Shown: piece after piece, positions 414 to 15,711 of the stretch
Layout: the number at the start of each line of letters is the position of its first letter
Numbering within the stretch: the first letter of the stretch is position 1
From: a virus
IMG/VR virus record: IMGVR_UViG_3300021961_000411
Location: 1-30,415 of that record
Reading direction: 5' to 3' (one strand)
Length of the DNA stretch: 30,415 nt
Position numbers and translations under genes: made by a program
Notes under the pieces: generated by a model
The model's database searches: none
Told to the model about the DNA's origin: nothing
Seen by the model: only the letters and a program-made list of their open reading frames with translations

Positions 414-2012
414 TTATTGTGTTTCACAAATAATACCTGTCTTTGTTAGTGTCGTTGTTTGTGGTGCAACGTTACTACTAATACTTCTACATTGGTTTGG
501 TGAAATCGTTATGTTCTGTAATGATAATGTATCTTTTAAAACTCCACTGTTTGGACATCCATTAATTTCACCACATGGTGTGTTTATATATTGTACAACA
601 GTACCTGACGCTAAACCGTTGGTTGATAATTGTACTGAGTATGTAGTTGTTCTTGCACTTGTATTAATAAATGCTCCTTCACAACCAGGTCTTAAAATTG
701 TTGTTCCTGTGGTATTACCACTTGAAACCAAAGTCACAGTAGTATTTGGATTGTTATTTGTTGTTATAGAATTAGTTATTGTTGGTCCGATTGTAGGTGT
801 TGCTGTGTACCCAGTCCAACCAACGTTAAATAATAAATTCATATTTACAGTAACACCTGCAGGAAGTGGGTTTGGAGAAACACTTATCGACCAAGTTGAT
901 GTTTTAGTAAATGAATTACCAACAGAAAGGGTGTTACCTTGCGTTAAAACTAAATTTACGTTATAGTTTTGGAAATTTTGTTGTGATGTTAATGTAAACG
1001 ACTGAGTGGTAATTGTACCTAAACTATCTTTAATATATGCCGTGTAGTTCCCCGAATTAAGGTTAAGGAATGTACTTGAATTTTGATATGTTACTCCGTT
1101 TAATGAATATGTATATGAAGGCACACCTCCGTTACCCACTATAGTTACAGAACCATTTGCCTGTGTTGAACATAAAGGATTATTAGCATTTACCGTAAGG
1201 GTTAATGGTGGATTACCACAAGCTCCCGTTACAACATTAATTGAGGTACTTGAGGCGTTAGGTCCTGTTATGACCCAACTACCAGTTGGTGGTGTTGTTG
1301 GTGAAATTCTATAAACAGTACCGTTAGTATATCCACTTATTTCCCATCTTGTATTACCTGTATTATAATACATTAAATAAGATGGTGTTGCGCTAGTCCA
1401 AGAAGGGTAATTATTAATTGTTGACCCCGATGAGAAATCAACTTGTGTTATTGTTGTATTTTGTGTTTGTTGTAAACAAAGTTGTGATGGATAGGTCGGC
1501 GTTGGTGGTGTTGGTGGCAAACATTCTGTACAACCTGTGTATGGTCCTGATAAAATGTTAGCAAAACTATTAATATAAGTTTGTCCTGTATATAGAGTAG
1601 TACCACTATTAGTCCAACAACCAACTTGTGTTGTTAATTCGTAAATTGAGCTAGCACTAAATTCAGGGTCAACTAAATTAGCCAAATAATAAACATATGT
1701 ACCACTATTAGAACAATCCTCAAATTGCTCTAAATAGAAACTATCATAATCTACAGTACAAGTTGTAGTACCTGTAAAATCACCGTAATAATCAACAACC
1801 GTTGCTGTGTATTCACCTGGAGATAAACTAGTTAATAACGTTCCCTGAGCACCTGTATTCCACGTAACATTATAAGGTGGTGTTCCGCCTGTTATATATA
1901 ATGTAACAACACCATTACTTGACTGAGGAGTTGATGCATTAATTGAGTTACACTCCAATCCTAAAGGAAACAATGTTATTATATTACAACTATTACCACT
2001 TAAAAGTCCCAT
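414..2012 (-). CDS. SprB-repeat virion adhesin with cysteine module (532 aa)
   Basis: Probable surface-exposed tail appendage or adhesin. Modules in order: a SprB-like repeat at about 22-86 (GGTPPYNVTWNTG, then SPGEYTATVVDYYG); a cysteine module at about 92-165 ending GPYTGCTECL; a short Pro-Thr linker (PPTPPTPTYP); a domain at about 178-250 with NYPSW, YYN and a following Trp; a second SprB-like repeat at about 270-343 (GGVPSYTYSLNG, then SGNYTAYIKDSLG); and an unrecognised Ser/Thr/Asn-rich C-terminal region of about 190 residues. The cysteine and YP..W modules are also in the protein at 3844-5442. It starts 6 bases after the stop of the upstream YadA-type fibre, so the two are probably cotranscribed. 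No signal peptide or membrane segment is seen, as expected for a virion protein. SprB-type repeats are known from Bacteroidota gliding adhesins; a phage adhesin role here is inference. Confidence 0.85.
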   Translation of the reverse strand: MGLLSGNSCNIITLFPLGLECNSINASTPQSSNGVVTLYITGGTPPYNVTWNTGAQGTLLTSLSPGEYTATVVDYYGDFTGTTTCTVDYDSFYLEQFEDCSNSGTYVYYLANLVDPEFSASSIYELTTQVGCWTNSGTTLYTGQTYINSFANILSGPYTGCTECLPPTPPTPTYPSQLCLQQTQNTTITQVDFSSGSTINNYPSWTSATPSYLMYYNTGNTRWEISGYTNGTVYRISPTTPPTGSWVITGPNASSTSINVVTGACGNPPLTLTVNANNPLCSTQANGSVTIVGNGGVPSYTYSLNGVTYQNSSTFLNLNSGNYTAYIKDSLGTITTQSFTLTSQQNFQNYNVNLVLTQGNTLSVGNSFTKTSTWSISVSPNPLPAGVTVNMNLLFNVGWTGYTATPTIGPTITNSITTNNNPNTTVTLVSSGNTTGTTILRPGCEGAFINTSARTTTYSVQLSTNGLASGTVVQYINTPCGEINGCPNSGVLKDTLSLQNITISPNQCRSISSNVAPQTTTLTKTGIICETQ

Positions 2013-2018
2013 ATTCTA

Positions 2019-3530
2019 TTACCAAGTAGCCCCACTTAATCTTTTCCAACCTATGTTATCCCTATAATAAAGGTAATTATCATCCCAAGTCACAGAACCA
2101 ATTTCACCGACAGTGGTGTCGGTTGTACCAGTTGGGGTAAAATTGTATGTTTTATATAAAACTAATTTGGGTACATATACTGTTTCGCTGGAAGTTCCCG
2201 TAATTGAGTACCCACCCAAGATAATGGAATGGTCAGCACTGAGTATTGATTGTTCACTCGCAACTATCGCCGAATTCTGTATACTTACTAAATTATCGTT
2301 ACCCCCTAAAATAATTGAGTCAAATAATGGGTCGGATGGGGTACCTCCGTTCATAACATTATTTCTACCGCCGATAATAGAACTACTATCCGTATCACCA
2401 GTTAAAATTAAATTTTGTTCCCCACCAAAAACAGTGGTTCTATTTCCTTGTGTAAAGTTAAACTCACCGACAACAAATGATGTTTGTCCTGAAGCAGTAC
2501 TACCAGAACCAAACGCCACGGAATAAGCACCTGCTGCTAAATTCCCGTCACCATGTGTGAATGACAGACCTCCTCTAGATTCAGAATTACCACCTGCATG
2601 TGAATTATTACCTGATGCAATTGAACCTTTATTTTCAGCATGTGAGTATTGACCTGAAGCCAATGACCCATCACCTTCTGCGTGGGAGAATTGCCCACTA
2701 GCAGTACTTGAACCTTCAGCATGTGAATAATCTCCGGTTGCCATAGAACCAGTTCCTTCAGCATGTGATGCATTTCCACCGGCAAACGTATTTAAACCTT
2801 CAGCATGTGAAGTAGAACCAGAAGCAATACTATTGGCTCCTTGAGCGTGTGAATATAAACCAATCGCAAATGTGCCGTCTCCGAAAGCAGAGGAATAGTT
2901 AGCAGTCGCCGATGCATTATTTCCAAACGCAAAAGATAAAGTTCCTTGCGCATCTGAACCTATTGATTGGACTCTATGGTAAAGAGTAATTTCATCATTA
3001 CATGCATGTATATTGTCAGTATATAAATCATTTATACAGTTACCTGAACCACCACTAAATGGTGTTGTCATACCCGTAATAGTAAATGTACCACCTGTAG
3101 TGTTAGTAAATGTAGCAGTTCCTCCCGTAGAGTTAACCGTACCTCCAGTGACAAATACTTCAGTACTACCTGTTGTAAATCCTGTTACACTAAACGTACC
3201 TCCTGTTGAATTTGTAAAGGTAGCATCTCCTGTACTATTATCGTAGGTACCACCCGTAACAAATACTTCAGTACTACCTGTTGTAAATCCTGTGACATCA
3301 AACGTACCTCCAATATTATTAGTGAAGGTCGCTGTTCCAATAGAATTATCGTAAGTTCCACCGGTAACAACCGTATTAGTTGAACCACTAAATAAAGGTA
3401 CCAATTGACTTAAAGTCGCTTTATAGGATGACCCATTCGCACTCTGTGAGGTGTCACCAGTTATTACAATGTGTATAAGGTCATTTAAACTCGCCCCACT
3501 TGCTAATGTCCTTGATGTTAAAGTTGCCAT
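2019..3530 (-). CDS. Tail fibre with YadA-head-like repeats (503 aa)
   Basis: Probable trimeric tail fibre. Residues 1-48 form a module (RTLASGASLNDL, then VITGDTSQ and GSSYKA) shared with the fibre at 7522-8904, probably the part that docks to the tail. Residues 51-158 are three tandem 36-residue repeats with the pattern VTGGTYDNS..ATFTN..GGTF.VTGFTTG. Residues from about 196 to 370 carry roughly 14-residue repeats of the kind ASG..SHAEG, the signature of the YadA head left-handed beta-roll, which trimerises. A C-terminal domain ends with GEIGSVTWDDNYLYYRD, a layout common at fibre tips. The gene follows a 95-residue SprB-like mini-protein and precedes another SprB-like adhesin. The start at 3530 follows an A/T-only leader. 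The receptor is unknown. The fibre call is strong from the repeats and context. Confidence 0.88.
   Translation of the reverse strand: MATLTSRTLASGASLNDLIHIVITGDTSQSANGSSYKATLSQLVPLFSGSTNTVVTGGTYDNSIGTATFTNNIGGTFDVTGFTTGSTEVFVTGGTYDNSTGDATFTNSTGGTFSVTGFTTGSTEVFVTGGTVNSTGGTATFTNTTGGTFTITGMTTPFSGGSGNCINDLYTDNIHACNDEITLYHRVQSIGSDAQGTLSFAFGNNASATANYSSAFGDGTFAIGLYSHAQGANSIASGSTSHAEGLNTFAGGNASHAEGTGSMATGDYSHAEGSSTASGQFSHAEGDGSLASGQYSHAENKGSIASGNNSHAGGNSESRGGLSFTHGDGNLAAGAYSVAFGSGSTASGQTSFVVGEFNFTQGNRTTVFGGEQNLILTGDTDSSSIIGGRNNVMNGGTPSDPLFDSIILGGNDNLVSIQNSAIVASEQSILSADHSIILGGYSITGTSSETVYVPKLVLYKTYNFTPTGTTDTTVGEIGSVTWDDNYLYYRDNIGWKRLSGATW
3057..3380 (-). repeat. Three tandem 108-bp (36-residue) repeats within fibre gene
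   Basis: Three copies with a period of 108 bases encode 36-residue units. A 35-base stretch is identical between copies at 3151-3185 and 3259-3293, so at least two copies duplicated recently or are being homogenised. Copy number could change by recombination. Confidence 0.85.
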
Positions 3531-3554
3531 ATTTTATTTTATATATATCAATGT

Positions 3555-3842
3555 TTATTCAAATTCGTATGGTATGTTGTCCATAAATTCAAAACAATCT
3601 CCGTCTTCAAACTGTTTATAGTAGCATTGTTCGTTACAATAGACACACCCGTTATCATCAATTATTTTAATAACATATGATGGATAAGTTTCAAATACCG
3701 CAGGTAATGTAAAACTATATGGTACTGTTGTTATCGTATCGATGTATTGACAAATAGCTCCTGTCGAACAATCATCACAAACCCATATATCATATGGTGA
3801 TGTTCCTGAGGTAATTGAATTTATGGTTACAAGTACTGACAT
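3555..3842 (-). CDS. Single-domain SprB-like mini-protein C (95 aa)
   Basis: A small protein that is essentially one SprB/Ig-like domain. It shows SGTSPYDIWVCDD near residue 13, a hydrophobic SFTLP strand in the middle and YVIKIIDDNGC near residue 60, matching the 'GGTPPY ... Y.V.V.D..GC' framework of SprB repeats. The last 25 residues are acidic and include paired cysteines. It is paralogous to the proteins at 8932-9216 and 9217-9504. It starts one base after the stop of the cysteine-rich Pro-Thr protein and is followed by a tail fibre, so it is probably translated together with them. It could be a small fibre adaptor, tip protein or decoration protein; which of these cannot be told from sequence. 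Confidence 0.85.
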   Translation of the reverse strand: MSVLVTINSITSGTSPYDIWVCDDCSTGAICQYIDTITTVPYSFTLPAVFETYPSYVIKIIDDNGCVYCNEQCYYKQFEDGDCFEFMDNIPYEFE

Positions 3843-3843
3843 A

Positions 3844-5442
3844 TTACTTACAATTTCTATTTACTGTACAATATTCTGTTATCATACCATCTTTAGCAAC
3901 ACTATAAATAAAGTTTCCGTATTGGATGTAATCTTCAACGATAGGTCTTGTTAATCCGCTATCAGAGAACACATACACACCAGTTGTTAATGTTGTTATT
4001 AGATTTGAGGTATAGAATGTTAGACCTTTTCCAAAGTCCGTTATTTGACAAATAGGACAATTCAAGGAGAACCCTCCTTTACCGTCCCAAGTTTTAAATG
4101 ATGAAGCTGGTGTACTCACAGTTAAACAATCAACACAATCAGTGTAAGTCGTAGCAGTAGTTGCCGTAAACTCGTTTATGTTAGCAACCACAAATCCTGA
4201 TGGTGCTACGTAATTTATATAATTTCCAACATACGTGTAACAATCACCACTTGTTGTTTTTAATAATTGACCTACAGACAAGTTGTTTGGTGGGTAAGCT
4301 GTTTGTGTAATCATACTATTAGAAGTACACGAAGTGAAGACAAACAAAGTACCAAACGCATATGTTGGTGTTGGAGTTGGTGTAGGGGTAGGTGTCGGAG
4401 TCGGTGTTGGAGTTGCTGTAGGTGTTGGTGTTGGTGTAACACAAAGTACCGAACAACTTCCTGTATATGCCGTTATAATGTATTGTACATAAGCATTTGC
4501 ACTACCGTTACTATTTTGTATATATGTTGCACATACAGTATTTCCATTTATAATACCATAAATCGTTGTACCTGTTGTTGTTACTGTAGTGGCACTTGTT
4601 CCTGAAATATATAATGGACCACTAATGTAGTACATTTCACCTGTGTTACAATCCCTTAATTCTTTAATATTACCACACTCAAAGAAGCCATTATCAACAA
4701 CAAATGTCACCGTATCCGCCGATGTAGTAATTGATGGTGTAGGTGTCGGAGTTGGGGTCGGTGTAGGTGTTGGAGTAGGCGTTACAGTATCTATTGTAAT
4801 ATTAGCGGTAAACCCACTACAAATGTTTGCCGTTGGTGTTGGTGTAGGGGTTGGGGTAGGTGTTGGAGTAGGGGTTGGTGTTGGAGTAGGTGTTGTTATA
4901 TCACATTCCAATAAAACATCAAAATCTAAAGATGAACATGGGTCTAAAGGTGGTGTTGGTGTTGAACAACTACCCGTGTACATTATTGTTTCATCTAAAT
5001 CAGGACATAATGATGATGTTGGATTTGAACCAAAGAATAGACAACTACCACCTAAAGTTGCAGATAAACACCAAAATGTTCCATTATAATAAATAAATCC
5101 CGCGTTACCCGTACCTCCTGACCAATAAGGATAACTATTATAACCACCTATTATTTGGTAATTTCCACTATATCCGCTATAGGTCGAATTATTGATGTCA
5201 ATACATAATGTACTTGAGCAACAGTCTAAACAGGATGGGTCGGTACATCCTGTTACCCCTTGTGCATTACCATCAAAACTAATGGTAGATGCGGTAACAC
5301 CTGTTATTATTGTATAACAACCATCAGGTAAATTAGAATCACCACTAACTGAGAATACTCCGCCAGGTGTTGAACTAAATCCCCAACTTGTTGCACTATA
5401 TACAATATTGTAACAACAACTACTTAAAATTACATCTGCCAT
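3844..5442 (-). CDS. Cysteine-rich virion protein with three Pro-Thr tracts (532 aa)
   Basis: A mosaic, probably surface-exposed protein. Domains in order: cysteine module A at 1-75 (DGCYTIITG, then [13 protein letters not shown]); a YP..W domain at about 80-160; a Pro-Thr tract at 184-204; a short spacer; a second tract at 221-237; cysteine module B at about 240-335 ending [10 protein letters not shown]; a third tract at 336-360; cysteine module C at about 366-440 (GDCYTYVG, then TYTDCVDCL); and a C-terminal domain with CPIC and YCTVNRNC. I count 28 cysteines in 532 residues, unusual for a cytoplasmically assembled protein and suggestive of disulfides or bound metal after release. It shares modules with the protein at 414-2012. 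It lies directly downstream of the two glycosyltransferases. No known catalytic motif was seen. The role as appendage or adhesin is inference from context and repeats. Confidence 0.85.
4364..4437 (-). repeat. Pro-Thr tract DNA repeat 1
   Basis: A degenerate hexamer repeat (GGNGTN on the plus strand, CCNACN on the coding strand) encodes about 24 residues of alternating Pro and Thr, with one Ala in place of Thr. Third positions are mixed throughout, so it is not a simple perfect microsatellite. Confidence 0.9.
4734..4783 (-). repeat. Pro-Thr tract DNA repeat 2
   Basis: The same degenerate CCNACN hexamer repeat encodes about 16 residues of alternating Pro-Thr. Only a 16-residue spacer separates it from the next tract. 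Confidence 0.9.
4832..4896 (-). repeat. Pro-Thr tract DNA repeat 3
   Basis: A degenerate CCNACN hexamer repeat encodes about 21 residues of alternating Pro-Thr directly after the LLECD segment of the cysteine-rich protein. Confidence 0.9.
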
Positions 5443-5460
5443 TCAGGATTAAACTTTATA

Positions 5461-5468
5461 TATAAATA
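5461..5468 (-). promoter_or_regulatory. TATTTATA element before the cysteine-rich protein gene
   Basis: On the coding strand this reads TATTTATA, 18 bases before the ATG at 5442, in the 40-base gap after the second glycosyltransferase. It matches the core found before other genes. A promoter here would let the downstream fibre genes be expressed independently of the glycosyltransferases. Function unproven. Confidence 0.28.
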
Positions 5469-5482
5469 ATCAAAAGTTTATT

Positions 5483-6307
5483 TTATAAATCTAAATCTAT
5501 GTCTCCAGGTTCATAATTGTAAAAATGTTTGTATAAATGTATAAAAGCTACATCAGGTTGCTCTTCCATTGGTACACTCCAACCTGTTTTATCGAACCAA
5601 TTTCCTTGATTTTTACTATCGTATTGTGCCCAATCATTCCAAATACTGCTGGTATACCCCGCATGTTGCATTATAAATGATAAACTAGCATCAGACCATT
5701 CAATAGGTCTTGTATCTAATTGTTGTATTTTTTCCCAATCAATTTCATCTAATCGGTTGTAAGCATCAATAAATGCCTCTCTTCTAAAAATTGTTCCCCC
5801 ACAACCTCCATAACTTTGGAGTGAGCCAAGGTGAGACCAATGGTTTCTTGATTCGTCCGTTACGTTAAATCTATCTTTTAAGTATTGATAAAGTCCGTTC
5901 GTATAAGCAGGTCCATTAGCCCCTGCTATGTCATGTTTTGGTGGTTTTGTTATTTCCATTTTACACCATACATCGTCTTCATAGTGAATAACCCAATCAA
6001 CATCTTTTAATGTTGTGGTACAAGCATCATAAATTCTTTTTAACCAAGCCAAATTACTTTCAAGACCTACGACAGGTCTACCAGAGTGTCTTAAATTTTG
6101 ACCTAATACATCTGTTCTTTTATAAACACAGTTAAATTTTTCCGCAACCGGTTTTAAAATATCTGAACCATCTTCATATAACGCAACAGGTATACTAGGA
6201 TAAATTTTTCTTAATTGTTCTAAAGCTTTATAACAGGCAACTAGTTTATATCCTGATTGATAAAATGCACCTATATTCATAATAAATAATCGTTTCTTTG
6301 CGTCCAT
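5483..6307 (-). CDS. GT-A-fold glycosyltransferase (274 aa)
   Basis: Probable nucleotide-sugar-dependent glycosyltransferase. The N-terminus (KRLFIMNIGAFYQSG) and the following PVALYEDGSD look like the first strands of a GT-A Rossmann-like core. WVIHYEDDVW places an acidic E-D-D at 110-112, where the metal- and sugar-nucleotide-binding DxD motif of GT-A enzymes sits. GGCGGTIFRREAF (about 167-179) resembles an acceptor-side loop, and a His near 257 (FIHLYKH) could be the C-terminal metal ligand. I cannot assign a CAZy family. The ATG at 6307 overlaps the preceding glycosyltransferase by 31 bases. An in-frame ATG at 6280 overlaps its stop as ATGA and would remove nine residues; I kept the longer form because KRLFIM looks like part of strand 1. 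Lying among adhesin genes, it may decorate virion proteins; substrate unknown. Confidence 0.82.
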   Translation of the reverse strand: MDAKKRLFIMNIGAFYQSGYKLVACYKALEQLRKIYPSIPVALYEDGSDILKPVAEKFNCVYKRTDVLGQNLRHSGRPVVGLESNLAWLKRIYDACTTTLKDVDWVIHYEDDVWCKMEITKPPKHDIAGANGPAYTNGLYQYLKDRFNVTDESRNHWSHLGSLQSYGGCGGTIFRREAFIDAYNRLDEIDWEKIQQLDTRPIEWSDASLSFIMQHAGYTSSIWNDWAQYDSKNQGNWFDKTGWSVPMEEQPDVAFIHLYKHFYNYEPGDIDLDL

Positions 6308-7473
6308 TCGCCATTTATGTCGTTAACCCAATAAACCCATTTACGTGGTTTTTCGTAAGCCTCAATTCTTATATTTAATTTTTCTTGGTACGTTGTTAAA
6401 TCTTGTCTGTAAATAACTTCACCACTTTTATCTTCAACACCTATATAAATAAACTTGAAATTTTCAGTATATGGTATTTCTAATTCTAAATCATATACTT
6501 CTTTTTGTCTTAAATACCATTCTGTTTCATCGTTTATTGGTGGATTAACTCCTTTAATTGTATTCGGGTGTAACATTCTTTCTTTAAAACTGATACCAGC
6601 ATATAATTCATAATCGTGGTGGGTTCTTACATTACCAAGACCGTAGATACCTAAATCAATATTGTTATCTTCTTCTTGTAACATATGTCTCAATCTTCTT
6701 TTTGAGTCATTGTCCATTTCCCACCAAGGTTTTTCAACAACACCTGTACTTAAATTGTCCGTATTAAAGTCGGTCCAATGTTTTGTTCTACCTTCTCTTG
6801 TATATTCATGCCATACAACAGTTTTATGTGGGTGAAATAAATCATAACCTAATGTAAATGAACGAATTGACAAACTAATTTCATCTCCAGCAAAATAGAT
6901 GTTAGGGTCATACTTATACTCTTCACAATGTTTACCAATCGTAAAAAAGAAATGTCCACTAACAAATCTTGCGGGAATTGGTTTATCTAATGTTTGCCAA
7001 TTTTCAATTGTGTGTGGTCTAAAAAGAATTGTTCCTCCTGGTGTGAAGTTTGATGCAACCATTTTATATGGTTCAACATTTAATAATTTATTATCACTTG
7101 GTCTATACATACCTGCATATGATGTAATGATTGGTTTTTCTGACCCTGTCATTTTCATCATTTCAATAAGTTCTTCATCCCAATTATTTAAAAACCTATG
7201 GTGTGAATCTAATTGTAAGGTGTATTCTTCCCCATCCCATAATTTTTGGATTTCTGAACGAGCCCAACATAGTCCTTTACTCTTTGACCAATGGTAATCT
7301 AATATTTTAAATCTTGGGTCATTTGCAAATTCTTCCATTGATTCATTTTCATCACGTTGCCAACAAATACCAAATGTTAAATTTTCAGGGTATTTAGCGT
7401 TTGCAATACAATCTCTTATGGTTGGTAAAAGTTCGGGGTCACGGTAAGATGCGATTTGAACAAATATTTTCAT
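6277..7473 (-). CDS. GlcNAc-transferase-like glycosyltransferase, Skp1-GnT type (398 aa)
   Basis: Probable GT-A glycosyltransferase of the family that includes the Skp1 hydroxyproline GlcNAc-transferase (Pfam Glycosyltransferase (GlcNAc), CAZy GT60). Visible hallmarks: the opening MKIFVQIASYRDPELLPTI; LQLDSHHRF with D89-S-H91 in the DxD position; a Gly-rich FTPGGTILFRP near 143-153; and FAGDEISLSIRSFTLGYDLF at about 195-213, very typical of this family, followed by H-E-Y. Residues from about 325 to 398 form an extra beta-rich segment with several Tyr/Trp, possibly an acceptor-binding domain. Characterised relatives transfer GlcNAc to hydroxyproline in eukaryotes; for this phage protein, sugar and acceptor are unknown. 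It overlaps the next glycosyltransferase and lies between two fibre cassettes rich in Pro-Thr tracts. The family call is confident, the substrate is not. Confidence 0.88.
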   Translation of the reverse strand: MKIFVQIASYRDPELLPTIRDCIANAKYPENLTFGICWQRDENESMEEFANDPRFKILDYHWSKSKGLCWARSEIQKLWDGEEYTLQLDSHHRFLNNWDEELIEMMKMTGSEKPIITSYAGMYRPSDNKLLNVEPYKMVASNFTPGGTILFRPHTIENWQTLDKPIPARFVSGHFFFTIGKHCEEYKYDPNIYFAGDEISLSIRSFTLGYDLFHPHKTVVWHEYTREGRTKHWTDFNTDNLSTGVVEKPWWEMDNDSKRRLRHMLQEEDNNIDLGIYGLGNVRTHHDYELYAGISFKERMLHPNTIKGVNPPINDETEWYLRQKEVYDLELEIPYTENFKFIYIGVEDKSGEVIYRQDLTTYQEKLNIRIEAYEKPRKWVYWVNDINGEWTQRNDYLL

Positions 7474-7521
7474 ATTCTTTTTTAATTAAAGAATATAAAA
7501 AAAATTACGATAATGAATAGA

Positions 7522-8904
7522 TTAAAATATTTTGTTCAGAACAAAAATATCACTATATATAGAGTTTGCAGCATTAGTACTACCCCACTCCACGGTAATA
7601 TCTAAAGTATTACTAACAGTTGTGTCGAAAGTAGTATTATTAACGGTATTAAAAGAAAAACCTTCTACATTACCAGTACTTAGTTTTGTGTAGTGAAATG
7701 CACCTAATGATACAATTGACGCAACTCCTGACCCTCCAATTTGTCGTATAGTAAAATTAATCGACATAGTCCAAACATCATTACTAACTATAGGTAAAGT
7801 TTGAGGCCCAGTATCAAGTAAAATAACAGAACCTGATTTTACTCTCACTTGTATAGTTTCATTATTTGCGGCATTTAAAACACCCGCAATGTCCGCTCTA
7901 AAACTATCACCAATAGTAAAATTATTTGAAGGTACACTAAGTGTACCAATACCACCGTCAATAATACTAGTTTCAGTAGTTGTGGCACTTACGGTTACAC
8001 TATTTCCTGTTTGAGAAAATAATCCGTATACGGTTGGTCCAGGAATTTGTTTAATTTTTACGTCTCCTGTTGAGGAATCTCTTGTTAAGTAATTAGCACT
8101 TAAACTTGTATCTGTGGTTGGTGTTGATGAAATATTCACTGTAGATGCGGTAAAATCATTTTGGATTATCGCATTTCCATTAACATCTAATTTTTCTGTT
8201 GGGGTCTCTGTTCCAAAACCCACATATCCTCTTGTTGCTCCTGAACCAACAATCATTATATCTGCAGTTGTTCCATTTGCATCTTGACCTGCATAAAACT
8301 TAATATAATCTTCAGTTCCTGTTCCTTGACGGTTCATTATGTTCAAACCATTTAATTCGTTTGAGGCATATAAAATACCATCTCCTACTTGACCATAACC
8401 GGGTCTTGTTGCGTTGTCCCAACTTCTTATCGCCAATTGTAATGTTGCTATTGGTTTTGTAAGATAAGGTGGAATAGTTACTTGAAATCTTGGTAGGTCT
8501 GTTGAACCTGACATTTCTAAAAATCCTCCTGTAGACCCTGTAAATGTTAATCTACCTTGACCCGCTCTAATGTCTAACGGCATTTCAGGCGTATCAGTTC
8601 CTAAACCAATTCTTATATTTGTTTGGTCTATTGTAATCCCTGATGTAATACCAAAAAAAGTATTACCCGTTACAGTTCCACCTGATAGTGGTAGAAATTG
8701 TCCATCACCTGCACCTGACGTACCACTTGTTCCTGAAGAACCGGTAGTACCTGTTATTGCATTGGCAATTTGTTGGATTGTTGCTTTGTATGAAGAACCT
8801 GCAACATTTTGAGATGTGTCGCCGGTAATGACGACATGTACAAAGTCATTTAATGTCACTCCTGTTGCTAATGTTCTATCAGTTAATCTTTCGTAAATTG
8901 CCAT
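7522..8904 (-). CDS. Tail fibre with shared N-terminal module (460 aa)
   Basis: Probable tail fibre. Residues 1-46 (RTLATGVTLNDF, VITGDTSQ, GSSYKA) are a clear paralogue of the start of the fibre at 2019-3530, presumably the tail-docking part. A short Gly-Ser-Thr collagen-like stretch follows (TGSSGTSGTSGAG). Then comes LPLSGGTVTGNTFFG, a common fibre-shaft motif. Two copies of an 'IGLGTDTPEMPLDI' / 'GFGTETPTEKLDV' motif come next, as seen before tip domains in many long fibres. I saw no C-terminal S74 chaperone-peptidase signature, so the beta-rich last 160 residues are probably the receptor-binding head. It follows two SprB-like mini-proteins and precedes the glycosyltransferases. The start follows an A/T-rich leader with TATTTATA. 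The receptor is unknown. Confidence 0.87.
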   Translation of the reverse strand: MAIYERLTDRTLATGVTLNDFVHVVITGDTSQNVAGSSYKATIQQIANAITGTTGSSGTSGTSGAGDGQFLPLSGGTVTGNTFFGITSGITIDQTNIRIGLGTDTPEMPLDIRAGQGRLTFTGSTGGFLEMSGSTDLPRFQVTIPPYLTKPIATLQLAIRSWDNATRPGYGQVGDGILYASNELNGLNIMNRQGTGTEDYIKFYAGQDANGTTADIMIVGSGATRGYVGFGTETPTEKLDVNGNAIIQNDFTASTVNISSTPTTDTSLSANYLTRDSSTGDVKIKQIPGPTVYGLFSQTGNSVTVSATTTETSIIDGGIGTLSVPSNNFTIGDSFRADIAGVLNAANNETIQVRVKSGSVILLDTGPQTLPIVSNDVWTMSINFTIRQIGGSGVASIVSLGAFHYTKLSTGNVEGFSFNTVNNTTFDTTVSNTLDITVEWGSTNAANSIYSDIFVLNKIF

Positions 8905-8911
8905 ATCACTT

Positions 8912-8919
8912 TATAAATA
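8912..8919 (-). promoter_or_regulatory. TATTTATA element before fibre gene
   Basis: TATTTATA on the coding strand lies in the 27-base gap between mini-protein B and the fibre, ending 7 bases before the ATG. It is one of several matching elements in intergenic gaps. Function unproven. Confidence 0.3.
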
Positions 8920-8931
8920 TTGGAAAAGTAG

Positions 8932-9216
8932 TTATTGGAAAACGTAATTGTTATCATCCATAAAAATTACAACTACATTATTTTGATATATATAATTTAT
9001 ACAATCCAAAAGATATAATTTTTCACAGATTGCACCATCTATAATTTTAAGATAAAACGACGTTTCACTAGGAAAAAAATTATCAGTATCAATAATTACT
9101 GATGGTGGAAATGTAGTAACTCCACTAACAAAAAAACATCCGATGTTATTTGAGTCGCATATGTAAATATTATATGGACTTGTACCGCTAGTAACTCCTG
9201 TAATTTCTATTAACAT
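8932..9216 (-). CDS. Single-domain SprB-like mini-protein B (94 aa)
   Basis: One SprB/Ig-like domain with SGTSPYNIYICD near residue 10, a central hydrophobic strand, and FYLKIIDGAIC near 54-64, the position where SprB repeats have 'Y.V.V.D..GC'. A hydrophobic then acidic C-terminus ends MDDNNYVFQ. It is paralogous to the proteins at 9217-9504 and 3555-3842 and closest to the latter in its opening motif. Its ATG directly follows the TAG stop of mini-protein A with no intervening base, which points to coupled translation. It may be a small appendage, adaptor or tip protein of the fibre encoded next. Function unknown. Confidence 0.85.
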   Translation of the reverse strand: MLIEITGVTSGTSPYNIYICDSNNIGCFFVSGVTTFPPSVIIDTDNFFPSETSFYLKIIDGAICEKLYLLDCINYIYQNNVVVIFMDDNNYVFQ

Positions 9217-9504
9217 CTATATCCAAACTAATCTATCACCACTTTCTGTAGTTATTATGAGTCCTGTCTCAGTTAATATAAAGAATGTATCGAATGGACA
9301 ATAAACCAGTTTAAATGTCATACATCCCGTACTATCAACAACTTTTATAAGTAATACTTGCGCTGTTGAGAAAAATGAATTTAATGTGAATGTACCACCT
9401 GAAGGCCCAAGTAAAAAACAATTGTTCATATATTGGTCACACACATAGAACTCATAAGGAGGTGTTCCTCCTGTCTCCCCCGATATGATTAGTTGTGATG
9501 GCAC
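9217..9504 (-). CDS. Single-domain SprB-like mini-protein A (95 aa), GTG start
   Basis: One SprB/Ig-like domain. GETGGTPPYEFYVCD at about 8-22 is nearly canonical for a SprB repeat, and LLIKVVDSTGCM at about 51-62 provides the closing strand. The C-terminus ILTETGLIITTESGD looks like a beta-hairpin. The start codon at 9504-9502 is GTG, two bases after the TAA stop of the 942-residue SprB protein, and no in-frame ATG precedes the domain, so GTG is the best start. It is the first of two adjacent mini-proteins upstream of a fibre. Because the domain also occurs seven times in the gene just upstream, it may have arisen by excision of one repeat. Function unknown. Confidence 0.84.
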   Translation of the reverse strand: MPSQLIISGETGGTPPYEFYVCDQYMNNCFLLGPSGGTFTLNSFFSTAQVLLIKVVDSTGCMTFKLVYCPFDTFFILTETGLIITTESGDRLVWI

Positions 9505-9506
9505 GA

Positions 9507-12335
9507 TTAACTAATAAATAAATTAAATGTTGATGCCGATGTGAATGTAGTATTCGCCGAATAAATTTGTTGGGTTTGTGAATTAGCTTGAAAATCAAGA
9601 TTTGCACCACCATATGAAAAGTCACTACTAGTTCCACTATAAATTGCACTAAACCCACCTTGTTCAACTTTAATATATCCACCCGAAGTGTTAATATTAC
9701 TAAATATAATATCATTATCATTACCTAAGGAATCATAACGATTAAATTTGAATACCATAGTCTGAGCTCCACAAATAGGGTCAATACCAAAAAAATCAGG
9801 ATTATATGTTGATGCACTTAAACAACCAATTCCTCGACCGGGTATTGTTTGGAAGAATGAGCCACCAGTAGGAACCGATGGTAATGGTGAAGGTGCTCCA
9901 TCTGCAGTATATAATAAATAACTACCAGCATTCAACGGAGCTAAAGTAGGTGTCGGTGTCGGAGTTGCTGTAGGTGTAGGAGTTGCTGTAGGAGTCGGTG
10001 TTGCCGTAGGTGTTGGTGTAGGTGTTGGTGTAGGGAATAAATATCCCGAACACGTAACATCATAAACAATCTCCAATCCTAATGTAAAATCGGCATCAGC
10101 CAAAGGGTCAACATCCCCATCGCAATTTGAAAGTATTGTTAAAGTATTATTTAATAAATCTATTTGGTATGATTGTATTTCAGTTATACCTGAAAGTATC
10201 GATTCAATTGTTGATTGCCACAAAGTATCCTGTGGAACATCATTTAGCGTAGTTGCAGTATAAAATGTTTCAGTAAACGCACTACCATTAACTATAACTT
10301 CACAAGTGAAAACTGCGGAATTAAATGTACAGTTAGTATAACCAGAAGTTATATCTAAATAACCTTCATTTAACATTTCTAACATACCTCTTTGGTTACC
10401 TGTAGTTGTTGTAAACGTATTTGTACAAAGATTAAATGTTTGGTAATTATTAATAAGGTTTCCTGTACAATTTAATGTAAAGTATTGTGTGTCAGTACAA
10501 CCAGACGCGTCTGTAATTGTAACATCATATAAACCTGATGAAAGATTACTAATTGATGAACCAGTACTACCATTTGACCATAAATAGCTAAATGGTGGTT
10601 CACCATCATAAATTACAACCGATGCACTACCATTATTACCTGTGGTACAGTTTGTGGTATTAATACCCGTTAATAAACTACCACCACTACTAATAGTAAA
10701 TCCTGTTGAAACGGAACATCCGTCATTATCAGTAACGGTAATAGTATAAGAACCGGCAGATAAGTTATTATAAGTTGTAGACGTTAAAGTAGTATTAAGT
10801 ATTTGATTACCATTACTTAAAACATAGTTTAATGGTAAAGTATATCCTGTAGATAACAAAACATCTGCAGTTCCATTTGTTTGGCCACAAGTAGAACCTG
10901 TGGTCGATACATTAATTTGAAACTTTTCAGTAGAACTTATAGTTATAGTTTCTGTATATACACATTGAGTTCCGCTACCACTAATTGTTAGTAAATACGT
11001 GTCGTTTGCAAGATTATCAAATAAATAAGTTTGATTTTGTGAAACGTTTGTTTGAATTGTATTAGTACTTAAACCTGAAAGTGAATAAGTATAAAACGCA
11101 TTTGCACCCGCAATACTTACATCGATAGAACCATTAGTTATGTTACAAGATGAATTAGTTACGACTGTTCCAACAACACTAAATCCATTTGGTGGTAATA
11201 CGTTTCCGTTAACAACTATTTCACAAAAATTAGCATCTCTTACCAAAACGTTATAGTTTCCAGAACTTAAACCTGTTAATGTAAACGTGTCAGATAATGT
11301 AAACCCAACTTGACTGGAAGTTGCAGAAAAATATAAAGGCTGAGAACCTCCACTTATAGTGAAAGTTAATTCCCCGTCAGATGAAAAACACGTAGGTTGG
11401 ACCGCAGTTAAAAATGATAATCCTAATGGGTCCGCCACTCCAACCGTTTGTGACTTTGTAGTTTCACAACCAAGTGAGTCAGTAACAGTACAAGAATAAA
11501 TTCCTTGTGTTAATCCTGTAATAAGTTGTGTTGTTTCTCCATTACTCCACAAATATGTGTATGGACCATTACCTGTAATACCCGTTACCGCTAATTTACC
11601 CCAGTTAACGGTGCAATTTGAAGTATTAACAACCCAAAAACCAAAATCAACTGACGTACTCGCACTTATAACTGCATTTTCAGTATTAGCGCTAGCACCT
11701 CCATTATCAATAATAGTTGCATAGTATATACCATCACTTAAACTATCATAATCAAATGGTAATGTGTTTGTTGTATCAACACTTTGTAAAACACCATCTT
11801 TATAAAATAGTATCGTATAAGGTGAACCTGTTGTAGTTCCTGTTACTTGTAAAAAACCGTTAGTGTCTCCACAAGTTGTTCCACTAGCGTTTATAATATT
11901 AGCTTCAAAACAAGGTGTAACCGCAACATTGATGTATAATTCGTTATTTTGTAATCCTAATGTATCATTAAGTCTAAATACGTAGGTTCCTCCAGTTAAT
12001 CCCGTAAATGTAATTTGACCAAATGATGTCTGCGCAGATATACTACCAGGTGTGACGTTATCAATCGTATAAGGAGGTGTACCACCAAAAGGTGAAAAAA
12101 TTACTGAACCTGTTGCTGCCGAACAAACACCCGACACTATAAAACTATATCCTAATGGTCCTTGATTACAGTTTTCAGTACAAGTTTGTCCTGTTGCAAT
12201 ATAAACACCAGCAGATGAACCAGTATAAGTTTCATCTAAACATATACTTTCACCAACTGACGCACCATATCTTGGTATACCACAACAATCAATATAACTA
12301 TAAACACCATTCGTTAATCCTGAAACACAAGCCAT
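9507..12335 (-). CDS. Multi-SprB-repeat virion adhesin with Pro-Thr linker (942 aa)
   Basis: Probable long surface adhesin of the virion. A Cys-containing N-terminal segment (YSYIDCCGI, TCTENCNQG) comes first. It is followed by about seven SprB/Ig-like repeats at roughly 70-140, 150-222, 235-298, 310-385, 395-465, 475-548 and 556-622. Repeats 3 and 7 are textbook (GPYTYLWSNGETT ... GIYSCTVTDSLGC; PPFSYLWSNGSTG ... GLYDVTITDASGC). A module at about 672-763 is also present in the 1120-residue baseplate protein, in both cases directly before a Pro-Thr tract (here 768-800). A unique C-terminal domain of about 140 residues ends the protein. It starts 13 bases after the 1120-residue gene. SprB repeats are known from the secreted gliding adhesin of Flavobacterium; use in phage particles is inference from neighbours. 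No secretion signal was seen. Confidence 0.9.
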   Translation of the reverse strand: MACVSGLTNGVYSYIDCCGIPRYGASVGESICLDETYTGSSAGVYIATGQTCTENCNQGPLGYSFIVSGVCSAATGSVIFSPFGGTPPYTIDNVTPGSISAQTSFGQITFTGLTGGTYVFRLNDTLGLQNNELYINVAVTPCFEANIINASGTTCGDTNGFLQVTGTTTGSPYTILFYKDGVLQSVDTTNTLPFDYDSLSDGIYYATIIDNGGASANTENAVISASTSVDFGFWVVNTSNCTVNWGKLAVTGITGNGPYTYLWSNGETTQLITGLTQGIYSCTVTDSLGCETTKSQTVGVADPLGLSFLTAVQPTCFSSDGELTFTISGGSQPLYFSATSSQVGFTLSDTFTLTGLSSGNYNVLVRDANFCEIVVNGNVLPPNGFSVVGTVVTNSSCNITNGSIDVSIAGANAFYTYSLSGLSTNTIQTNVSQNQTYLFDNLANDTYLLTISGSGTQCVYTETITISSTEKFQINVSTTGSTCGQTNGTADVLLSTGYTLPLNYVLSNGNQILNTTLTSTTYNNLSAGSYTITVTDNDGCSVSTGFTISSGGSLLTGINTTNCTTGNNGSASVVIYDGEPPFSYLWSNGSTGSSISNLSSGLYDVTITDASGCTDTQYFTLNCTGNLINNYQTFNLCTNTFTTTTGNQRGMLEMLNEGYLDITSGYTNCTFNSAVFTCEVIVNGSAFTETFYTATTLNDVPQDTLWQSTIESILSGITEIQSYQIDLLNNTLTILSNCDGDVDPLADADFTLGLEIVYDVTCSGYLFPTPTPTPTPTATPTPTATPTPTATPTPTPTLAPLNAGSYLLYTADGAPSPLPSVPTGGSFFQTIPGRGIGCLSASTYNPDFFGIDPICGAQTMVFKFNRYDSLGNDNDIIFSNINTSGGYIKVEQGGFSAIYSGTSSDFSYGGANLDFQANSQTQQIYSANTTFTSASTFNLFIS
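9946..10034 (-). repeat. Pro-Thr tract DNA repeat 4
   Basis: A degenerate CCNACN hexamer repeat encodes about 30 residues of Pro-Thr. Ala replaces Thr at three spots, in a higher-order pattern (T-P-T-P-T-A) repeated about three times. It is the longest tract in the window. Confidence 0.9.
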
Positions 12336-12348
12336 TCTTTAATTAATT

Positions 12349-15300
12349 TTAACAAATTACATATCCACTTCCAGTGTCTTGTATGTTTATGTACAGAGCA
12401 AAGTTTGTACTTGGTATAGTATAAGTGTAGTAAGAAATTAATCCACAATAACCCGTATATATACCTGAGTTATCCCCAAGTCCGAAAGTCACATTATTAC
12501 CCGAAGTATTTAAAATACCAAATTCAAGTATATCGCCAGATATAAACGAATTAAGGTATGTGTTATACAATTGAGTTAATGAAGGTTTGTTTCCTACAGT
12601 TTGGTTATTAATATATACCCAAGAACCACCATTTATTCTAAATACAAAGCTTACATTATTAGGTGTTGATGTAATTGGTGCTCCGAAATTGAATATAGCA
12701 TTGACGTATGATGGTGTTGCGGTTGGCGTAGGTGTCGGAGTCGGTGTAGGTGTAGGTGTCGGAGTAGCAGAAGACGGTGTACAATTAATGTCAATATCTA
12801 ACCCAATGTTTAATGATAAAGTACTATTCGTAAAATCATCGTAACATGTTGAATTACTCACAATTAATGTATTACCCGCAAAATAATAGTTTAGTCCGTG
12901 TTGGTATAATTCTTCTAACTCTGTATCTAATGCGTTTAATAATTGTGTTTGGGTTGGGTAATCATTTATACCATATCCTGTGTAGAATTGAGATTGTACT
13001 AACACTTGATTATCCAAACGGCAATCTACATACCAATTAGATACTATACTATTTAAATCACACTGATTTTGTGTATATCCACTAGTACTAAGTTGAGACG
13101 CCAATAGTGTCTGTAAAACATTTGCACCATCTAAAATCAAACTACACTGAAGTGTTTGGTCTATACAATCATAGGCGAATGGTTGTCCTGTGTACTTACA
13201 AGGAACACAATCAACAGGTATAAATTGACACCCTCTTTGTCTTCTCCAAACATATTTTTGTCTATGAAAAATAGAGTTCTCCATTTTTTGACCTGTTAAC
13301 CATAATGTGGTTCCAGGCACCACCTGTTCTAAAAGTCTTTGCCAATAATCACCAACACCTAATGTAAAATCAATCATTTTCTGATATGTGTATTCATTGG
13401 ACGGTATACCTACCGTTTGTTGGGATTGTAAGTATTTCCAATAGATAGATTGTAAAGTTGGATATCCTCCGGTTTTACCATCAAAAATTGTTTGTCGGTT
13501 TCTTACATTAATAAAGTTGTTGTAGAATGTTTGTGCAAACTCAAAGAATGTTTTTTCTTTTGGTTTTGGATTTATTATTGTCCAATCAATGTCACCAGGG
13601 TATGGGTAAGGCGCAGTAAGTCCTGAATTAGGTATTGGGTAGTTATATTTCACAGACATATCCCATACATCATATGTGATACCTTGACCCATATTCATAT
13701 ACAACTCTATGTTTTTAGAGTTGATGACTAATTTATCATCCGTAACCGAATAATCAACCCCATTAAAGTTAGAATTATTTTTTCTAGTTCCAACTTGGTT
13801 TACAGGCCAAGATTTTTGATTATCTGAAACTCTTCTTAAAGTATACCCAACATTCATATCAGGGAACTTTCTAAGAGTATTCATATACTCTTGTCCAAAA
13901 TTAAATGGAGCTACTTCAGTAATTAAATAAGGGTTAGACCCTGTGAATTGTGAATTTGCAACATCAACAGTTTCAACTGAGCGGTGTTTAGGGCTTTTTT
14001 CGAACCAACCCGCACCTTTTTGGAAGAAGTTGTCTTGTGTTTGTTGTGGACTTTTTGGGTATCCGTCAGAATCAATACCGTAATCATCTAAAGTAGTATT
14101 GATTAATTTAATTACCCCACTACTTGTATAACCAGTATATGTAACACCTTGAATGCTAAAAATGTTATTATTATCTAAACTTGGTGTTGTTTCAAACTTA
14201 GTACCTCCTGATATTTGAGCGTACTGTTGGTTGAATTTATCCACATTGATTTTTGTGTCCGCAACATAGACTATCTCATTAAATTCGACTAACGCATCAG
14301 GTGCCCCGATAAATCTCATTACATATTCTAAAGATTGTCTTGTACCCTTTGTTTTAAACATGTAAGCCGCGTTTAATATTAAATTTCTATAATATTGATA
14401 ATTAAGTTCGGTAGGTGTCGGTGTGTTTTTTTGTCCTTGATAAATTTGTTGTGGTGTTGGATTAAATACCGCAGTTAAAAAATCTTCGTTGGTTACTGGT
14501 GAAATGTTAGGATTAATACCTAATGTTTGAGCTAAATTAGATAGTAATTGTGAAGGTATATCATCACCAACTTGATAGTTAACTGAATTAATATAAGCTA
14601 AACTATCTATAAACTTTTTAACCTCATCAAAACTTCTACCATAGATTTGTAATACTTTTTCTATTTTTTGGTCAGTAGTATCGAATTCTTTAAATGCGCC
14701 AGTTATTAAAAATCTACTAATAAGATTTGTTTTATATTCATCTAATTTTTCAGCAATTAGTTGAAGTTGGTCTAGATATTTGTTGAATAATGAACTTGTA
14801 ATATCTAAGTTCCAAAATTTATTAATTGGCCAACTTACCTTTCGGTTATATAAAGTTAATACACCATTATCGTCGTAATCAGGGTATGAAAATTTCGCAG
14901 TATACTTTGGTGCACTATTTTGGTTCAAAAGAAACTTTTCAACTTCATCAAATGCGTCGTTAAAAATTTCCTGTGTTTTTGTATTATTAGGTTTTAATAT
15001 TAAAGAAGCGGTAGTTGCACTAACTCCACTAAAAGGGTTCCCTTGTACTGTTATAGTTACCGTACCACCAGATAAACTCTGAGTTGGTGTGAAATCTGTT
15101 AATGGGAACTCTACATTTAATGTATCATAATATAATGAATAACTTTCGAACTCAGATGTTAAAGCCCTAATTGGGTGTATAGGAAATGGTTTTACTTCTA
15201 TATTTCTTTTTGCGTTTACAGAAAAATCAACTTCGAATGGATTTCTAAACAACGCAGTATTCATATCAAATGTTGTTTCATCTTCAACACTATCGTATGT

Positions 15301-15711
15301 TATATTAAATGCGGTGTCACCAACAAACAATCCTGATTGATGTTGAGCGATAACTTCAATAGCCGCTGGGAAATTGTTTATTATTTTAATCGCGGATGCT
15401 GATAATCTTTTTGCTAAAGAACCATATAATGAAAAACTTGTTACTTCAGATAAATCATAATTAGGATAAACTTTAAAGTTTTTTTCAATTATTCTTTTAG
15501 CTTGTTCAATGTTATCAATTTTAAGATTTTCTAAAGTATAACCTTGTGAAAATACCCCCGTATCAAATTTTCTATTTGATTTTTCATATATTGCGGATGT
15601 AAATTGAAAATTTCCTTGCGTAAGTCCCCCTCCATCGGTAATTTGAACCCCGACAATATTGTCTGCGAAAGTATTTGTTCCAATAGGTGGAAAGAAAATT
15701 TTATTTGCCAT
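12349..15711 (-). CDS. Large baseplate/tail protein with tail-protein-I-like core and C-terminal adhesin-type tail (1120 aa)
   Basis: Probable baseplate structural protein. The first 870 residues look like a genuine tail protein, with mixed alpha/beta content and few cysteines. The segment YMFKTKGTRQSLEYVMRFIG around K455-G456-T457 resembles the 'KGT ... G' core of P2-type tail protein I, the wedge partner of J/gp6. A Cys-rich stretch (GCQFIPVDCVPCKY) precedes a module at about 885-975 shared with the 942-residue SprB protein, then a Pro-Thr tract (about 982-1001) and a beta-rich C-terminal domain of about 120 residues. So the adhesin-type tail appears grafted on a baseplate body, perhaps to anchor or display fibres. 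Its ATG overlaps the stop of the 302-residue gene by one base (TAATG). The structural call is firm; the wedge-I assignment is tentative. Confidence 0.82.
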   Translation of the reverse strand: MANKIFFPPIGTNTFADNIVGVQITDGGGLTQGNFQFTSAIYEKSNRKFDTGVFSQGYTLENLKIDNIEQAKRIIEKNFKVYPNYDLSEVTSFSLYGSLAKRLSASAIKIINNFPAAIEVIAQHQSGLFVGDTAFNITYDSVEDETTFDMNTALFRNPFEVDFSVNAKRNIEVKPFPIHPIRALTSEFESYSLYYDTLNVEFPLTDFTPTQSLSGGTVTITVQGNPFSGVSATTASLILKPNNTKTQEIFNDAFDEVEKFLLNQNSAPKYTAKFSYPDYDDNGVLTLYNRKVSWPINKFWNLDITSSLFNKYLDQLQLIAEKLDEYKTNLISRFLITGAFKEFDTTDQKIEKVLQIYGRSFDEVKKFIDSLAYINSVNYQVGDDIPSQLLSNLAQTLGINPNISPVTNEDFLTAVFNPTPQQIYQGQKNTPTPTELNYQYYRNLILNAAYMFKTKGTRQSLEYVMRFIGAPDALVEFNEIVYVADTKINVDKFNQQYAQISGGTKFETTPSLDNNNIFSIQGVTYTGYTSSGVIKLINTTLDDYGIDSDGYPKSPQQTQDNFFQKGAGWFEKSPKHRSVETVDVANSQFTGSNPYLITEVAPFNFGQEYMNTLRKFPDMNVGYTLRRVSDNQKSWPVNQVGTRKNNSNFNGVDYSVTDDKLVINSKNIELYMNMGQGITYDVWDMSVKYNYPIPNSGLTAPYPYPGDIDWTIINPKPKEKTFFEFAQTFYNNFINVRNRQTIFDGKTGGYPTLQSIYWKYLQSQQTVGIPSNEYTYQKMIDFTLGVGDYWQRLLEQVVPGTTLWLTGQKMENSIFHRQKYVWRRQRGCQFIPVDCVPCKYTGQPFAYDCIDQTLQCSLILDGANVLQTLLASQLSTSGYTQNQCDLNSIVSNWYVDCRLDNQVLVQSQFYTGYGINDYPTQTQLLNALDTELEELYQHGLNYYFAGNTLIVSNSTCYDDFTNSTLSLNIGLDIDINCTPSSATPTPTPTPTPTPTPTATPSYVNAIFNFGAPITSTPNNVSFVFRINGGSWVYINNQTVGNKPSLTQLYNTYLNSFISGDILEFGILNTSGNNVTFGLGDNSGIYTGYCGLISYYTYTIPSTNFALYINIQDTGSGYVIC
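12712..12769 (-). repeat. Pro-Thr tract DNA repeat 5
   Basis: A degenerate CCNACN hexamer repeat encodes about 19 residues of Pro-Thr near the C-terminus of the 1120-residue protein, separating a shared module from a unique end domain. Confidence 0.9.

What the first reader, a model, noticed from the sequence alone, without database searches (positions are those of the whole stretch)
2019..12335. Duplicated adhesin cassette: Pro-Thr protein, SprB-like mini-protein(s), fibre with common N-terminus
In transcription order, cassette 1 (12335-7522) is a Pro-Thr-linked 942-aa protein, mini-proteins A and B, and a fibre. Cassette 2 (5442-2019) is a Pro-Thr-linked 532-aa protein, mini-protein C, and a fibre. 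The mini-proteins are paralogues, and so are the fibre N-termini (about 46 residues), while shafts and tips differ. This looks like segmental duplication followed by swapping of the receptor-binding parts, giving the phage two sets of adhesion devices. Seen: order and shared motifs. Inference: duplication history and dual host specificity.
Basis: partly seen in the sequence, partly recalled or inferred. Interest (0 to 1): 0.7.

Follow-up and report, generated by a model that had tools for sequence, protein, structure and literature searches.

The report
Two-slot swappable adhesin locus in phage
An uncultured large phage carries two receptor-binding fibres built on a shared, exchangeable base; each fibre begins with a short position-specific peptide and sits next to its own small anchor-like protein, so the phage seems able to swap tips while keeping each fibre on its own mount.

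Summary
The sequence observation holds: gene order, three homologous mini-proteins (blastp E 1e-7 to 7e-10) and two homologous fibre N-termini (67% over 40 aa). "One duplicated cassette" does not hold. The two Pro-Thr proteins are not homologous (HHalign probability 0.2%). Across about 55 distinct viral loci the minis form three old lineages, each tied to its own neighbour: PT1, a glycosyltransferase locus, or PT2. In distant relatives these units lie 60-80 kb apart or inverted. The mini domain (M) is always N-terminal and often carries a Pro-Thr linker plus a different C-terminal domain. In the core group a stand-alone M is followed by a fibre 33/33 times and an extended M 0/12. Fibre bodies and shafts are exchanged between slots, but the first residues are slot-specific: 10-11 aa in slot 1 (11/11), 7 aa in slot 2 (19/19). 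Homologous tips hang on different carriers behind Pro-Thr linkers. My reading: M is a docking adaptor, the fibre prefix an address peptide and Pro-Thr linkers swap joints. It works like the K1-5/SP6 dual receptor-binding-protein system (hepta- and undecapeptide docking). No gp10-like adapter was found and docking is inferred. A new variant of a known kind.

The parts
9507..12335 (-). PT1 (942 aa): conserved carrier of SprB/Ig-like repeats to about aa 765, then Pro-Thr linker, then variable tip (aa 803-942, about 9510-9929)
   Evidence: Pfam SprB E 2e-13; occupancy 0.99 to aa 750 then 0.05
9217..9504 (-). M_A (mini A), PT1-adjacent lineage
8932..9216 (-). M_B (mini B), glycosyltransferase-locus lineage; stand-alone, followed by fibre
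   Evidence: AF2 all-beta model pLDDT 69.5
7522..8904 (-). Fibre F1 (slot 1). FN module aa 1-62 (8719-8904); long slot-1 prefix MAIYERLTDR (8875-8904)
6277..7473 (-). GT1, PF11397 GlcNAc-transferase family
   Evidence: Pfam E 5e-65, phrog_24687 E 1e-105
5483..6307 (-). Small gene (274 aa) overlapping GT1, present in many relatives; possible second glycosyltransferase (YEDDVW motif, by eye)
   Evidence: no Pfam or PDB match; synteny
3844..5442 (-). PT2 (532 aa): conserved along its whole length in the core group, small beta domains joined by disordered Pro-Thr linkers
   Evidence: alignment A3; AF2
3555..3842 (-). M_C (mini C), PT2-adjacent lineage
2019..3530 (-). Fibre F2 (slot 2). FN module aa 1-59 (3354-3530); short slot-2 prefix MATLTSR (3510-3530); YadA-head repeats
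   Evidence: Pfam YadA_head E 9e-16
414..2012 (-). T3 (532 aa), SprB-repeat protein, the true homologue of PT1 in the window
   Evidence: HHalign probability 98.4% with PT1
12349..15711 (-). W1120: conserved protein of the baseplate region to about aa 980, then Pro-Thr linker and tip (aa 1001-1120, 12352-12711)

Best explanation
This is a modular host-attachment locus beside the baseplate genes of a large myovirus. It has two fibre slots. In each slot a small all-beta module (M) is a docking adaptor: either it stands alone and a separate fibre follows it, or it is fused through a linker (often Pro-Thr) to its own tip and no fibre follows. The fibres share an exchangeable 47-residue N-terminal body, and a 7- or 10-11-residue leading peptide addresses each fibre to its slot. 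Pro-Thr linkers on PT1, PT2, W and M are flexible joints at which receptor-binding tips are exchanged, between phages and between carrier genes. The locus was assembled from three old M-units (PT1-M, M-fibre-glycosyltransferase, PT2-M) and not from one recently duplicated cassette. Shown: homology, gene order, slot-specific prefixes, tip sharing. Inferred: physical docking, the address role, receptor binding by the tips.
For: M is N-terminal in all hits and often carries a linker and a variable C-terminus up to 1428 aa, including BspA-type DUF285 repeats in one. In the core group a stand-alone M is followed by a fibre 33/33 and an extended M 0/12. M types A, B and C are clean clades and group with PT1-, GT- and PT2-adjacent M of distant phages. 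Prefix class matches slot 30/30 in the core, while the body tree rejects one clade per slot (p-AU 1.5e-43, 7 slot switches on the best tree). Shafts cross slots: L013 F2 matches window F1 (46% over 183 aa) and L052 F1 matches window F2 (40% over 292 aa). Homologous tips sit on PT1 and W (E 8e-37), PT1 and PT2 (8e-34), M and PT1 (3e-14). Distant genomes have the units 60-80 kb apart or inverted. K1-5 directs two receptor-binding proteins to one adapter with MAKLTKP and MIQRLGSSLVK (PMC6872550); slot-2 prefixes MAKLTTR and MATLTSR are close to the first.
Against: No binding or structural evidence. No T4gp10-like adapter or known docking fold was found. The extended-M/no-fibre rule rests on about two independent gains in the core. 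Outside the core several stand-alone M genes are followed directly by the glycosyltransferase. One distal fibre (L040) has a slot-2 prefix in a GT-type locus. Prefix conservation could be passive, if cross-overs happen only inside the shared body.
Confidence: 0.55

Rival explanations
1. One reading: a whole segment (Pro-Thr protein, mini, fibre) was duplicated and the receptor-binding parts then swapped.
For: Paralogous minis and fibre N-termini in the same order; both sets present across the core group.
Against: PT1 and PT2 are not homologous. M lineages predate the core group and track different neighbours. Units are unlinked or inverted in distant relatives.
Confidence: 0.1
2. The minis are fibre assembly chaperones or trimerisation helpers encoded just upstream of their fibre client, not virion parts.
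For: Small genes directly before fibres.
Against: M is the N-terminal domain of long proteins with adhesin-like tips. M_A sits next to PT1 and precedes another M, not a fibre, in most core loci. PT2-adjacent M in distant phages has no fibre.
Confidence: 0.15
3. The minis are themselves receptor-binding (SprB-like) tips and the C-terminal extensions are add-ons.
For: Ig-like all-beta model; weak local profile matches to the SprB proteins (50-60% probability over 22-30 aa).
Against: M is the conserved part and what follows it varies; no SprB family match. M lineages follow neighbour genes, as docking parts would.
Confidence: 0.1
4. Slot-specific fibre prefixes are neutral: recombination needs homology, which starts only after the prefix, so each slot keeps its own start by descent.
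For: Upstream flanks of the two slots differ, so cross-overs there are unlikely.
Against: Prefixes are well conserved within a slot (0.73 identity against 0.45 between slots). Length class is kept across phages with 50-60% protein identity and in distal loci (16/17 GT-type, 24/24 others). Similar short docking peptides are known (PMC6872550).
Confidence: 0.25

Closest known systems
K1-5 / SP6 dual receptor-binding-protein system (adapter gp37, K5 lyase heptapeptide MAKLTKP, endosialidase undecapeptide MIQRLGSSLVK; PMC6872550)
   Same: Two receptor-binding proteins per phage, told apart by a short and a longer N-terminal peptide; slot-2 prefixes share 3-5 of 7 residues with the heptapeptide, and slot-1 prefixes often carry [QNE]RL as the undecapeptide does (QRL)
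   Different: Myovirus baseplate; no T4gp10-like adapter found; a conserved 47-aa body follows the prefix; a family of small M adaptors encoded next to each slot; peptide resemblance may be convergent
T4gp10-like branched systems (G7C, CBA120, Klebsiella KP32/KP34/Menlow groups; PMC6872550)
   Same: Conserved docking parts with exchanged receptor-binding parts, two or more receptor-binding proteins
   Different: No sequence or fold match to gp10 seen; docking module is a free-standing or fused small beta domain
Phage Ig-like and SprB/FnIII display domains
   Same: PT1 and T3 carry SprB repeats; M is modelled as an Ig-like sandwich
   Different: M is always N-terminal and single, with no SprB family match
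Moraphages, large freshwater phages of Bacteroidota (PMC12619734)
   Same: Genome sizes of relatives up to about 294 kb; SprB repeats point to Bacteroidota
   Different: Kinship not tested; the paper does not describe these adhesin modules in the passages read

Membership tests
K1-5/SP6-type adapter system | Two receptor-binding proteins with distinct short N-terminal docking peptides | tested here: met
   10-11 aa vs 7 aa prefixes, 30/30 by slot; docking itself not tested
K1-5/SP6-type adapter system | T4gp10-like adapter protein binding both peptides | tested here: inconclusive
   M and PT2 profiles and models gave no gp10 match; PT1 and W not folded
K1-5/SP6-type adapter system | Both receptor-binding proteins present on one virion | not testable with these tools
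   needs cryo-EM or virion proteomics
SprB repeat (PF13573) for the minis | Match to the SprB repeat model | tested here: not met
   no hit at E<=1 for A, B or C
SprB repeat (PF13573) for PT1 | Match above gathering score | tested here: met
   50.2 bits, cut-off 28, 4 repeats
YadA-head fibre (F2) | YadA_head repeats above gathering score | tested here: met
   58.3 bits, cut-off 25
Myovirus contractile-tail baseplate locus | gp6-like and gp25-like wedge genes nearby | tested here: met
   phrog_219 E 3e-22, phrog_261 E 3e-18
Moraphage lineage | TerL and MCP phylogeny | not tested
   marker genes not in the window

The most novel reading that the evidence does not exclude
A previously undescribed family of small adaptor domains (M), with three ancient addressed types, forms a general plug-in system in large Bacteroidota phages: each type mates with one carrier and one fibre address peptide, so shafts and tips can be traded between slots, carriers and phages without losing their mount. 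The address peptides would share a docking logic with K1-5-type podoviruses.
Probability: 0.35. Interest if true: 0.7.

Novelty: new variant of a known kind. Interest (0 to 1): 0.52.

Why it matters
If true, it gives a readable code for which fibre goes to which mount in large phages that have no cultured relative in the collections searched. It explains how such phages exchange receptor-binding parts between slots without breaking assembly, and lets the receptor-binding tips be found automatically as whatever follows an M domain, an FN body or a Pro-Thr linker.

Tried and rejected
No DNA or protein match in 50,697 phage records, so no cultured relative or host. PDB fold search of M gave only low-confidence Ig-like or transthyretin-like matches (Z 6.7 or less, under the tool's caution level), and BFVD hits that are probably the same uncultured-phage family. 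PT2 fold search gave nothing, and PDB sequence search of the glycosyltransferase gave nothing. Considered and dropped: PT1-PT2 homology; whole-cassette duplication; a T4-like late-promoter motif before the genes (TTTATAAA occurs 7 times on each strand, only 3 of them within 10 nt of a start).

Full report
WHAT WAS CHECKED. The window is a 30,415-base fragment of an uncultured virus. All main genes are on the - strand. gp6- and gp25-like baseplate wedge genes lie upstream of the adhesin region. The three minis are homologous (blastp E 1e-7 to 7e-10; shuffles 0/500), and the fibre N-termini share 67% over 40 residues. Shuffled proteins give no hits with either profile.

WHERE THE DUPLICATION IDEA FAILS. 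After masking the linkers, the 942-aa and 532-aa Pro-Thr proteins are not alike, and their profiles do not align (HHalign probability 0.2%). The real homologue of the 942-aa protein is the SprB-repeat protein at 414-2012 (98.4%). In about 25 core phages (PT1 51-95% identical to the window's) the order is W - PT1 - M_A - M_B - F1 - GT - (GT2) - PT2 - M_C - F2 - T3, with some genes absent in some loci. M_A, M_B and M_C are separate clades. With distant phages added, M_B groups with M genes next to the glycosyltransferase (98/90), M_C with PT2-adjacent M (95/92) and M_A with PT1-adjacent M (98/95). In those distant phages the glycosyltransferase unit lies 60-80 kb from the baseplate locus, and the PT2 unit can lie on the opposite strand with M before PT2. 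The window locus is therefore a gathering of three old units. Which arrangement is ancestral is not known.

WHAT THE MINIS ARE. M is always at the N-terminus (169 domain hits). Many copies continue into a linker, often Pro-Thr, and a different C-terminal domain, up to 1428 aa, in one case BspA-like DUF285 repeats. In the core, a stand-alone M at the end of an M run is followed by a fibre in 33/33 cases and an extended M in 0/12. These 12 come from about two gains, so the support is weaker than the Fisher value (3e-11). Outside the core the rule is looser. The model is an Ig-like all-beta fold of moderate confidence (pLDDT 69.5) with no confident PDB match. The conserved, N-terminal, neighbour-specific behaviour is what one expects of a docking module; the docking itself is inferred.

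THE FIBRES. The first residues depend on the slot: M[AP]..Y..LTDR-type, 10-11 residues, in slot 1 (11/11), and M[AS].LT.[RK], 7 residues, in slot 2 (19/19). The following 47 residues do not depend on the slot (identity 0.59 within a slot, 0.57 between slots). A tree of these bodies rejects one clade per slot (p-AU 1.5e-43), with seven slot switches on the best tree, three on well-supported branches. Shafts also cross: the slot-2 fibre of L013 is of the window's slot-1 type, and the slot-1 fibre of L052 of the window's slot-2 type, each with the prefix of the slot it sits in. In distal loci, GT-type fibres have the long prefix in 5 of 6 and PT1-locus or similar fibres the short one in 5 of 5; L040 is the exception. 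A neutral account, with cross-overs confined to the shared body, is not excluded.

THE PRO-THR LINKERS. PT1 is conserved to about residue 765 and W to about 980, then both become variable at the linker. The nearest relative (L081, PT1 95% identical over 767 residues) has a completely different tip after the linker. Homologous tips hang on different carriers: PT1 and W (E 8e-37), PT1 and PT2 (8e-34), M and PT1 (3e-14). PT2 in the core is conserved along its whole length, so it is more likely a scaffold than a variable receptor binder.

KNOWN SYSTEMS. The closest is the K1-5/SP6 arrangement, in which one adapter holds two receptor-binding proteins through a heptapeptide (MAKLTKP) and an undecapeptide (MIQRLGSSLVK) (PMC6872550). 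Slot-2 prefixes such as MAKLTTR share 3-5 of 7 residues with the heptapeptide; none of 529 other N-termini shares five and 1.3% share four. The comparison was made after the fact and the peptides are short, so it is a lead only. No gp10-like adapter was found. The glycosyltransferase (PF11397) sits beside slot 1 in nearly all groups; that it decorates the Thr-rich linkers or the fibres is a guess.

VERDICT. The thing is a modular dual-adhesin locus with a new family of adaptor-like domains and probable address peptides: a new variant of a known kind.

Noticed in passing
6277-7473: PF11397 GlcNAc-transferase-family gene beside slot 1 in nearly all loci, including distant ones (about 40% identity); may glycosylate fibres or Thr-rich linkers.
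   Followed up: partly
414-2012: SprB-repeat protein homologous to PT1 (HHalign 98.4%), placed after fibre 2.
   Followed up: partly
12349-15711: The 1120-aa protein ends in a Pro-Thr-linked tip (aa 1001-1120) that most relatives lack; its aa 822-980 resemble PT1 aa 607-765 (HHalign 89%).
   Followed up: partly
3-386: Start of a long conserved protein (MSYIIKNTAALINTLVTDAGRKKISQG...) cut by the window end; about 730-870 aa where complete in relatives, no Pfam match.
   Followed up: no
L032:6471-7256 and L033:10221-10907: Zinc-finger/HNH-like genes (by eye; L032 gene has no Pfam match) between M and the glycosyltransferase.
   Followed up: no
L040 (97-aa M, 180-aa fibre): Only exception to the prefix rule: slot-2-type prefix in a glycosyltransferase-type locus.
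   Followed up: no
7522-8151 (F1 tip): The C-terminal about 210 aa of fibre 1 are 63% identical to the fibre of a distant phage (L062), pointing to horizontal tip exchange.
   Followed up: partly
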